Shown one piece after another: positions 45,344 through 57,570 of a stretch of DNA of 64,000 nt. This DNA is from Traorella massiliensis (GTDB taxonomy: Bacteria; Bacillota_I; Bacilli_A; Erysipelotrichales; Erysipelotrichaceae). The stretch covers positions 1,038,917-1,102,916 of the forward strand of contig NZ_LT629969.1 of the NCBI RefSeq assembly GCF_900104665.1, in the 5' to 3' direction. The first letter of the stretch is position 1. Every line of letters begins with the position of its first letter. Made by a program: the position numbers and the translations under genes. Under the pieces are notes generated by a model, which had not been told where the DNA came from, did not search any database, and saw only the letters and a list, made by a program, of their open reading frames with translations.

Positions 45344-45461
45344 AAACCACCTCATCCTATTTTATGAAAGGATGTCAGCTTTTTAGAATTGAATTGTTCA
45401 AAGTCTCACTATTTTTTAAAATCATCTTTCTATCAATCAAAAATGAAATTTCCTAATATAT

Positions 45462-55286: not shown

Positions 55287-55304
55287 AGCCACATCCTTTC
55301 AATA

Positions 55305-55313
55305 TAAAGTATG
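55305..55313 (-). promoter_or_regulatory. SigK-like -10 element before dpaA
   Basis: CATACTTTA on the minus strand matches the late mother-cell SigK -10 pattern CATAnnnTA. No clear AC -35 was found at the expected distance. The DPA operon is SigK-dependent in Bacillus. Confidence 0.4.
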
Positions 55314-55370
55314 CTCATTTACATATTATGCGACACCAGAAAACAAATAATCTGTCTTTTATCCTATAAT

Positions 55371-55399
55371 CAAGAAAATGATTTTGTAACCAAAATCAT
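55371..55399 (-). terminator. Terminator at the 3' side of the intron-like element
   Basis: ATGATTTTG, four-base loop, CAAAATCAT, a perfect stem, then TTTCTTG on the minus strand. It separates the element from dpaA. Confidence 0.75.
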
Positions 55400-56090
55400 A
55401 TGCAAATAAGCAACTCCCTATCTGCATACCCACCTGCCTTTCTAGCGGCGTGGTTCCACCGGCACCTTCACATCTCCTTCTTTTGCTCCTCTCTGAAGCG
55501 TAAGGCATTGGCGAAATGCTCCAGTGTCAGCTTATTATTTTTTTCTGGCAGGATTCCATCCCTTTGCCATGCTTCCATCTTCCAGTGAATCGCATGACTG
55601 CCGGGTCCTGCTTCTTTTCTATCTGAACAGGCATAAATAGGGGGTTTATCATAAGACCCTTTGCGAGTATGAAGCTCTCACAGGGTCATCGCTATATCCT
55701 TTCTGACATGCCAACCACCAACACATGAATGTTCCTATTTGCTCATCCAATTCACTCTAGTAAATAGTATATAGACTTCCCGCTTTTTCGCACGGTCGTC
55801 AAACATCCCTGCCGCCTATGTAGTTCACACTATATTTCGGCCTGCCAGACCATCTATGGACCTCTCGGTTTCCCACAACTCCTTCGCACACTTCCTCACG
55901 AAAGTGCACTAATTTAGATTTTCTGTCTTGCATTGGAACTCAACAGAGTAGGACTTGCACCTACGTGACACCTTTCTTTTCAAAGTTCGTATACTCCGTT
56001 TATACACCGTATCGTAAGTAGAACTTCTAATAAGAAAGAAAGCTCAACCATGCCTGTACATGTTTGAACTATAGCGACTGCCTGTCGCAC
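55400..56090 (-). mobile_element. Group IIC intron-like remnant (no reverse transcriptase)
   Basis: About 690 nt without a convincing gene and with higher GC (about 50 percent in sampled lines, against about 36 outside). Its 5' end GTGCGACAGGCAGTCGC starts directly after the T-run of the tyrS terminator, the known insertion site of group IIC introns, and GTGCG is the group II 5' consensus. Several hairpins are visible, such as GTAGG/CCTAC around TGCAAGT. No domain V or maturase ORF was found, so it is probably 3' truncated. A 36-codon ORF (55468-55578) is doubtful. Another structured RNA class is possible. Confidence 0.5.
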
Positions 56091-56114
56091 AAAAAATCGC
56101 ACGATGTGCGATTT
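56091..56114 (-). terminator. tyrS terminator
   Basis: AAATCGCAC, three-base loop, GTGCGATTT, then T on the minus strand. The stem overlaps the tyrS stop codon and abuts the GTGCGAC start of the element downstream. Confidence 0.9.
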
Positions 56115-57336
56115 ATTGAGCAATAACATAATAATTTCTTTTACCACGTTTAATAACTGTCTTATTATCAAAAAGAGCTGCTTCTTTTGAAATGATTGCT
56201 TGTGGATCTTTAACTTTTTCACCATTGACCTGAATAGATCCTTGTGAAATCCACTCTCTTGCTTCTCTTTTACTGCTGGCAATTTTAGCTTCTACTAAAA
56301 CATCACATAATGTTTGCGCTTCAGCCACCGCAGATGATTCAAAAGTAGAAAGAGCATCTTTAATCTCATCCTCATTGAGATCCGTAATATTCCCTCTAAA
56401 TAAAACTTCTGTAATACGTAATGCTTTTTGTAATTCTTCCTCACCATGAAGGTCACGTACCACTTCAGCTGCCAATGCTTTTTGAGCCTCACGTTTATGT
56501 GGTTCACTCTTCATTTTCTCCTCTAAAGCTTCAATTTCTTCTTTAGAAAGGAAAGTTAATGTTTTTAAATAATCGATTACTTTACTATCTTCACTATTAA
56601 CCAGGAACTGATACATTTCATATGGTGATGTCTTATCCCGATCTAGCCAGATTGCCTTACCTTCACTTTTCCCAAACTTTGTACCATCTGCTTTTGTTAC
56701 CAGGGGCATTGTAAATGCATAAGCTTCTTTACCAAGCTTCTTACGAATCAATTCAATGCCCGCTGTCATATTTCCCCATTGATCCTGACCAGCTACCTGC
56801 ATGATACAGTCTCTGCTTTCATAAAGATGTAAAAAGTCAAGAGCTTGAATAATCATATAAGAGAATTCAGTATAGGTAATTCCTTCATCAAGTCTTCTTG
56901 AGACAATATCTTTATTCAGCATATAGTTAATATTAAAGTGTTTACCATAATCTCTCAAAAAATCAATAAAATTGATATCCTTGCACCAATCAAAATTATT
57001 CACGACTTCAAATCCAAAAACTTCTGATGCCTGTTTAGTTAGTTTTTCAATGTTATGGGCTACTTCTTCTTTCGATATCATAGCTCTTTCAGCAGTTGGT
57101 TTTGGATCACCAATCAAACCTGTAGCTCCTCCTACTAAAAGAATAGGATTATGTCCGGCTTTTTTTAATCTTTTTGATATTAAAAAAGAAGAATAATGGC
57201 CAATATGCAAACTATCCCCTGTAGGATCTGTTCCAATATAAAAAGTAATTTTTTCATTGTTTAAAAGATCTTTGATCTTTGGCGAGCTGCAGTCTTTAAT
57301 GAGCCCTCGCCATTCTAATTCTTCATATAGATTCAT
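56113..57336 (-). CDS. tyrS: Tyrosyl-tRNA synthetase
   Basis: Class I synthetase, 407 residues. The HIGH-type motif is GDSLHIGHYSS near 40-50, and the KMSKS-type motif KFGKS near 228. A C-terminal S4 domain (about 340-407, KREAREWISQGSIQVNG) binds tRNA. GGAGGGAATGA precedes the ATG. Expression is controlled by the tyrosine T-box upstream. Confidence 0.97.
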   Translation of the reverse strand: MNLYEELEWRGLIKDCSSPKIKDLLNNEKITFYIGTDPTGDSLHIGHYSSFLISKRLKKAGHNPILLVGGATGLIGDPKPTAERAMISKEEVAHNIEKLTKQASEVFGFEVVNNFDWCKDINFIDFLRDYGKHFNINYMLNKDIVSRRLDEGITYTEFSYMIIQALDFLHLYESRDCIMQVAGQDQWGNMTAGIELIRKKLGKEAYAFTMPLVTKADGTKFGKSEGKAIWLDRDKTSPYEMYQFLVNSEDSKVIDYLKTLTFLSKEEIEALEEKMKSEPHKREAQKALAAEVVRDLHGEEELQKALRITEVLFRGNITDLNEDEIKDALSTFESSAVAEAQTLCDVLVEAKIASSKREAREWISQGSIQVNGEKVKDPQAIISKEAALFDNKTVIKRGKRNYYVIAQ

Positions 57337-57356: not shown

Positions 57357-57570
57357 TAAAAAAGCGTCATCCAAGGACGCTTTACGTGGTACCACCTTAG
57401 TTCACATCAACTGTGCACTCATATCGTTAACGCCGATATACGTCTTATTCTCATAAGCAGCTCCAAGGTGTATTTCTATAGTCACATTATGATTTTCACC
57501 AGCCATCATATCTCTGAAAAGTGATCCTATAGCTCTTGTCTCTTCAACGCTATTTTGTTGTTTTACGAGC
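57357..57570 (-). ncRNA. T-box leader (tyrosine) of tyrS
   Basis: The leader carries the T-box motif AAGGTGGTACCACG (57385-57398) and, just after it, the terminator hairpin AAAGCGTCC/GGATGACGCTTTTTT. Upstream, CTATAG flanks a long stem I, followed by GAAATACACC, in which TAC (57470-57472) is the likely specifier codon for tyrosine. Uncharged tRNA-Tyr would favour the antiterminator and allow tyrS expression. Confidence 0.93.

What the first reader, a model, noticed from the sequence alone, without database searches (positions are those of the whole stretch)
55400..56090. Large structured element inserted at the tyrS terminator
About 690 nt with higher GC, no solid ORF, beginning GTGCGACAGGCAGTCGC right after the terminator T-run and closed by its own terminator hairpin. 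Group IIC introns insert exactly there, but no maturase or domain V is visible. It is either a 5' intron relic kept as RNA or a different large noncoding RNA.
Basis: partly seen in the sequence, partly recalled or inferred. Interest (0 to 1): 0.65.

Follow-up and report, generated by a model that had tools for sequence, protein, structure and literature searches.

The report
Fused relics of two mobile elements
The 720 bases after the tyrS gene are broken pieces of two unrelated jumping elements, the front of a group IIC intron and the tail of a TnpB-type element, that most likely both landed on the same transcription terminator and were then joined by a deletion; the relic itself is ordinary, but it exposes a TnpB element family that homes to terminators just as group IIC introns do.

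Summary
The element reads on the minus strand, 56090 to 55371 (720 nt). Its first 444 nt (56090-55647) are the 5' fifth of a ~2.17-kb group IIC intron: GTGCGAC directly after the tyrS terminator T-run, 84-85% identical to a multicopy RT-encoding intron of Longicatena, stopping before the RT, domain V and domain VI. Its last 276 nt (55646-55371) are not intron: they are the right end of a TnpB-type (IS605-like) element found at about 20 places, mostly 97-99% identical, in the same genome. The "closing terminator hairpin" is that element's end palindrome. The host genes on both sides (tyrS, dpaA) are native neighbours, so the chimera formed in place. Best model: TnpB element and IIC intron each inserted at the tyrS terminator, then a ~3.3-kb deletion fused them. 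Support: this TnpB family's left ends lie directly behind terminators (35 of 38 here, 8 of 8 in another genus); a sister species carries the TnpB element at the same terminator; a second locus has the opposite chimera (terminator, TnpB 5' part, intron 3' part). Nothing indicates a working ribozyme or a selected noncoding RNA. The terminator-homing TnpB family is the interesting part.

The parts
56113..57336 (-). tyrS, the gene whose terminator was the target
   Evidence: 407-aa ORF; T-box leader upstream; 79-97% identical orthologues in the genus
56091..56113 (-). tyrS intrinsic terminator (hairpin ATCGCAC-ATC-GTGCGAT plus T-run)
   Evidence: sequence; equivalent hairpin and T-run behind tyrS in G001, G002 and G003
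55647..56090 (-). 5' 444 nt of a group IIC intron (DI to the start of DIV); no RT, DV or DVI
   Evidence: 84-85% identity to G047 introns; Rfam RF02001 30.5 bits; 78 of 80 consensus pairs kept; relatives 2162-2172 nt long
55371..55646 (-). Right end (last ~9 codons of tnpB plus 3' noncoding end with the presumed omega RNA) of a TnpB-type element; the left end and most of tnpB are missing
   Evidence: about 20 places in G000 match, mostly 97-99%; TIGR01766 match of the full ORF
55374..55397 (-).
   Evidence: ends nearly all copies of the element
55293..55370 (-). Right flank up to dpaA; the first ~37 nt have no counterpart in G003 and are unexplained
   Evidence: comparison of tyrS-dpaA spacers

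Best explanation
The element is a dead chimera. A TnpB-type element inserted directly after the T-run of the tyrS terminator, and a group IIC intron inserted at the same T-run, between the hairpin and the TnpB element's left end. A deletion then removed about 1.7 kb of intron (RT, DV, DVI) together with the left end and nearly all of tnpB (about 1.6 kb), joining intron nt 444 (..CTTATGATA) to the last codons of tnpB (AACCCCCTATTTATG..) without microhomology. Shown: identity of both halves, the junction, native host flanks, and the position of both element families behind terminators. Inferred: the order of insertion (the element nearest the hairpin came last), the deletion, and loss of function (no DV, so no splicing; no left end and no protein, so no transposition of its own).
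For: Both halves exist separately as longer elements: the intron in G047 and Firmicutes relatives, the TnpB element in G000 and G003. tyrS and dpaA are neighbours in G001 and G002 with a 72-77 bp spacer, so the chimera formed in place. TnpB left ends lie behind terminators: 35 of 38 in G000 and G003 against 57 of 539 window T-runs, Fisher p = 7e-26; 8 of 8 in G028. The sister species G003 has the TnpB left end behind the tyrS terminator and a right end before dpaA. A second G000 locus has the opposite chimera: terminator, TnpB left end and 404 nt of the tnpB frame, then the 3' end of the same intron family. Many TnpB copies in G000 are internally deleted.
Against: No intermediate with both complete elements in tandem was found. 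About 37 nt of the right flank are unexplained. The G003 element is split by a contig gap. The junction rests on one assembly; reads could not be checked.
Confidence: 0.82

Rival explanations
1. The TnpB element inserted inside the intron (domain IV) and later deletions removed its left end and the rest of the intron, rather than the two standing side by side.
For: The junction lies at the start of DIV, where extra sequence is tolerated; the order intron-TnpB is also what nesting gives.
Against: Left ends of this family lie behind terminators, and no terminator is evident at the intron breakpoint; no intron sequence follows the right end.
Confidence: 0.1
2. Template switching: the intron RT copied the 3' end of a TnpB transcript and then intron RNA, inserting a chimeric cDNA at the terminator in one step.
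For: The intron 5' end and the TnpB right end are both exact; the chimera is single-copy.
Against: The second chimera has the opposite order with a TnpB left end directly behind a terminator, which this does not explain. TnpB elements reach this terminator on their own in G003.
Confidence: 0.04
3. The fused block is a selected large noncoding RNA or an IStron-like working composite (intron ribozyme plus TnpB end).
For: The intron part still keeps 78 of 80 consensus pairs; the right-end core is conserved between genera.
Against: Single copy, absent from 97 relatives as a unit; no DV; no left end; no Rfam match beyond the intron. Preserved pairing is also expected if the intron was active until recently.
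Confidence: 0.04

Closest known systems
Group IIC introns (bacterial class C)
   Same: 5' end GTGCGAC directly behind a terminator T-run, DI-DIV sequence and pairing, relatives with RT and DV
   Different: 3' four fifths missing, so neither splicing nor retrohoming is possible
IS200/IS605-family TnpB elements and their internally deleted (PATE-like) derivatives
   Same: TnpB-related ORF, subterminal right-end palindrome, conserved left flank and variable right flank, internally deleted copies (PATE-like element described in PMC7290912)
   Different: No tnpA in the element; the target is the T-run of intrinsic terminators; TnpB lacks an evident zinc finger and third RuvC Asp
IStrons (PMC4227781)
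   Same: A self-splicing intron part joined to a TnpB-type element end
   Different: Group II and not group I, single copy, broken on both sides; an accident of two insertions and not a mobile composite

Membership tests
Group IIC intron | 5' end GTGYG at a terminator T-run | tested here: met
   56090 directly after TTTTTT; same arrangement in relatives
Group IIC intron | DI-DIV sequence and structure | tested here: met
   84-85% identity to G047 introns, RF02001 30.5 bits (just below the cut-off of 32), 78 of 80 pairs
Group IIC intron | Domain V (catalytic) | tested here: not met
   No RF00029 match in the window or at this locus
Group IIC intron | Class C RT in DIV | tested here: not met
   No RT in the element; present in G047 copies. 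The element is a fragment of such an intron and not a working member
IS200/IS605-type TnpB element | TnpB-related protein in full copies | tested here: met
   TIGR01766 41 bits, cut-off 32; Foldseek best hit CnCas12f1, low-confidence model
IS200/IS605-type TnpB element | Right-end palindrome, conserved left flank, variable right flank | tested here: met
IS200/IS605-type TnpB element | Mobilised by a Y1 TnpA | tested here: inconclusive
   One Y1 gene in G000, outside this element and without these ends nearby
IS200/IS605-type TnpB element | Omega RNA made from the right end | not testable with these tools
   Right-end core conserved between genera; no expression data; covariation not shown
IStron | Composite mobile as a unit (same junction at several sites) | tested here: not met
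   Junction occurs once in G000 and in no relative searched

The most novel reading that the evidence does not exclude
These TnpB-type elements actively recognise intrinsic terminators (the T-run serving as target and TAM), compete with group IIC introns for the same sites, and their nuclease produces the deletion fusions; the solo right end at tyrS would then be a still-active guide-RNA locus for TnpB proteins encoded elsewhere in the genome.
Probability: 0.12. Interest if true: 0.65.

Novelty: new variant of a known kind. Interest (0 to 1): 0.42.

Why it matters
Terminators are known as a safe landing site for group IIC introns. Here an unrelated class, TnpB-type elements, uses the same niche, so one terminator can be hit by both, and chimeras in both orders appear to record the collisions. 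Whether the hairpin is read by the transposase, by the TnpB guide RNA, or only survives selection is testable. For annotation it is a warning: a GC-rich structured block behind a terminator can be two fused element ends and not a new noncoding RNA.

Tried and rejected
Large ncRNA families: no credible Rfam match except the intron model up to E = 10. Reciprocal translocation as the origin of the window chimera: rejected because tyrS and dpaA are native neighbours. Intron 3' end hidden in the right flank: ATTATAGGATAAAAGACAG does not resemble the intron 3' ends and has no close second copy in the genome. Shared ancestral TnpB insertion with G003: disfavoured, because the right ends show separate expansions. 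Covariation of the right-end RNA: not shown, since the alignment misplaces the palindromes. Trans-splicing between the tyrS 5' part and the C9:185 kb 3' part: judged unlikely; the 3' part has changes in DV and scores 32.9 bits against a cut-off of 40. The lone Y1 transposase as mobiliser: its surroundings do not carry these ends. Synteny of the second chimera: phnE has no orthologue in the relatives.

Full report
What is there. The element lies on the minus strand, downstream of tyrS. tyrS ends at 56113 and its terminator AATCGCAC-ATC-GTGCGATTTTTT ends at 56091. GTGCGACAGGCAGTCGC begins at 56090. GC is 0.446 against 0.354 for the window, and no ORF of note lies inside. At Rfam's own cut-offs the window shows only a T-box, a tRNA and an L21 leader. 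With a permissive threshold the one credible hit in the region is group-II-D1D4-3 over its whole length, 30.5 bits against a cut-off of 32, E = 4e-4.

Two halves. A search of the window's own genome (G000) with 55380-56110 returned the locus itself plus about 20 other places, most of which match only within query 465-731 and reach the same last base. The other half, 1-464, occurs nowhere else in G000. It occurs in G047 in several copies at 84-85% identity, ending at the same base. The window element is therefore a join at 55647/55646: CTTATGATA from the intron and AACCCCCTATTTATG from the second element. G047 continues after GATA with TAAGCG, and full TnpB copies have CAGAG before AACTCCC. There is no microhomology at the join.

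First half. In G047 (Longicatena caecimuris, by the record titles) the sequence continues into a group II RT/maturase (TIGR04416). Of 80 related loci fetched, the closer ones begin GTGCGAC directly behind a hairpin and T-rich tract, and several carry Rfam D1-D4 and domain V. Seven measured full-length relatives are 2162-2172 nt. The window keeps the first 444 nt, stopping before the RT. Domain V, essential for group II catalysis (established knowledge), is missing. The relic keeps 78 of 80 consensus base pairs, like its functional relatives, which suggests that it was functional until recently; it is no proof of present constraint.

Second half. Full copies of the repeated element are about 1.87 kb (L038:2558-4431) with a 492-aa ORF. 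The ORF matches TIGR01766 (IS200/IS605 TnpB-related) above its cut-off and guided_TnpB below it. A low-confidence AlphaFold model has CnCas12f1 as its best Foldseek hit, E 8.4e-5. The first two RuvC acidic motifs are conserved; no third Asp or zinc finger is evident. Six copies have the full-length reading frame; others are internally deleted or one-end relics. The right ends close with a palindrome and ATTTTCTTG and have unrelated sequence after it. The window holds the last ~9 codons of tnpB and the complete right end. In TnpB systems this region encodes the omega RNA (established knowledge); here a core around GGAAC..CGCCGC.AGAAAGGCAG is conserved into another genus.

Why both are behind tyrS. 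Left ends of this TnpB family (TATATTAGGAAATTTCA) lie behind T-runs. Of 40 motif matches in G000 and G003, two look like chance matches in other sequence; 35 of the other 38 have a terminator-like hairpin (MFE of -8 kcal/mol or lower over 45 nt), against 57 of 539 T-runs in the window. The Fisher test, run on all 40 matches, gives p = 7e-26. In G028, another genus with a 49% identical protein, all 8 loci read have a hairpin and T-run there. Group IIC introns are known to insert at terminators (PMC4424553). I found no report of TnpB elements doing so in the papers searched, but that library is incomplete.

History of the locus. G001 and G002 have tyrS and dpaA 72-77 bp apart, the empty state. 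G003 has tyrS, terminator and TnpB left end up to a contig end, and on another contig the TnpB right end followed by dpaA. G000 has the chimera between the same two genes, so it formed in place. The window right end is 97-99.5% identical to the G000 copies and only 90% to the G003 copy at this locus, while tyrS and dpaA differ by 16 and 20%. The insertions in the two species are therefore probably independent, although gene conversion is not excluded. As both elements insert directly after the T-run, the one nearest the hairpin should be the later arrival: TnpB first, intron second, then a deletion of about 3.3 kb across their border. About 37 nt directly after the right end have no counterpart in G003 and remain unexplained.

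A second case. The only other trace of this intron family in G000 is a 3' end with a weak domain V at C9:185201-185274. It too is fused to this TnpB element, in the opposite order: terminator, left end plus 404 nt of the tnpB reading frame, then RT C-terminus, DV, DVI. Its flanks (phnE, tgt) could not be tested for synteny because phnE has no orthologue in the relatives. Two chimeras in opposite orders fit two terminators each hit by both elements. A single intron split by rearrangement remains possible for the second locus.

What it does. Most likely nothing: no domain V, no RT, no TnpB, no left end. The possible exception is the right end, which could still yield a TnpB guide RNA if it is transcribed. 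The presumed guide has no close match elsewhere in the genome, and no expression data are available.

Verdict. The relic itself is of modest interest. The terminator-homing TnpB family is the part worth following.

Noticed in passing
G000:C9:184459-185290 (L114 6460-7291): Opposite chimera: terminator, TnpB left end and 404 nt of the tnpB frame, then the 3' end (RT C-terminus, DV, DVI) of the same IIC intron family, between phnE and tgt.
   Followed up: partly
window 45444-45460 (-): Solo TnpB left end behind a terminator-like hairpin, upstream of a D-Ala-D-Ala carboxypeptidase-like gene; the rest of the element is gone.
   Followed up: partly
L052 5160-5710 and L053 5044-5594: A 551-bp unit in two copies (99.5%) with this element's left and right ends but a different Cys-rich 123-aa ORF instead of tnpB, suggesting that the ends can carry other cargo.
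   Followed up: partly
L248, L250-L256 (G028): Another genus has a 49% identical TnpB element with similar ends, 8 of 8 behind terminators.
   Followed up: yes
L239 359-1603: A left end of this type followed by a Nudix-like ORF and a second ORF and a possible right end 1245 nt later; could be another cargo variant or chance.
   Followed up: no
L111 and L086 2200-3661 (G004): In a further species of the genus tyrS and dpaA are separated by about 2.3 kb that include what looks like an IS110-type transposase on the strand opposite tyrS (recognised by eye, not tested).
   Followed up: no
window 55334-55370 (-): About 37 nt between the TnpB right end and the sequence shared with G003; neither intron end nor known repeat.
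   Followed up: partly
window 57370-57556 (-): T-box leader upstream of tyrS, 107 bits, as expected for an aminoacyl-tRNA synthetase gene.
   Followed up: no
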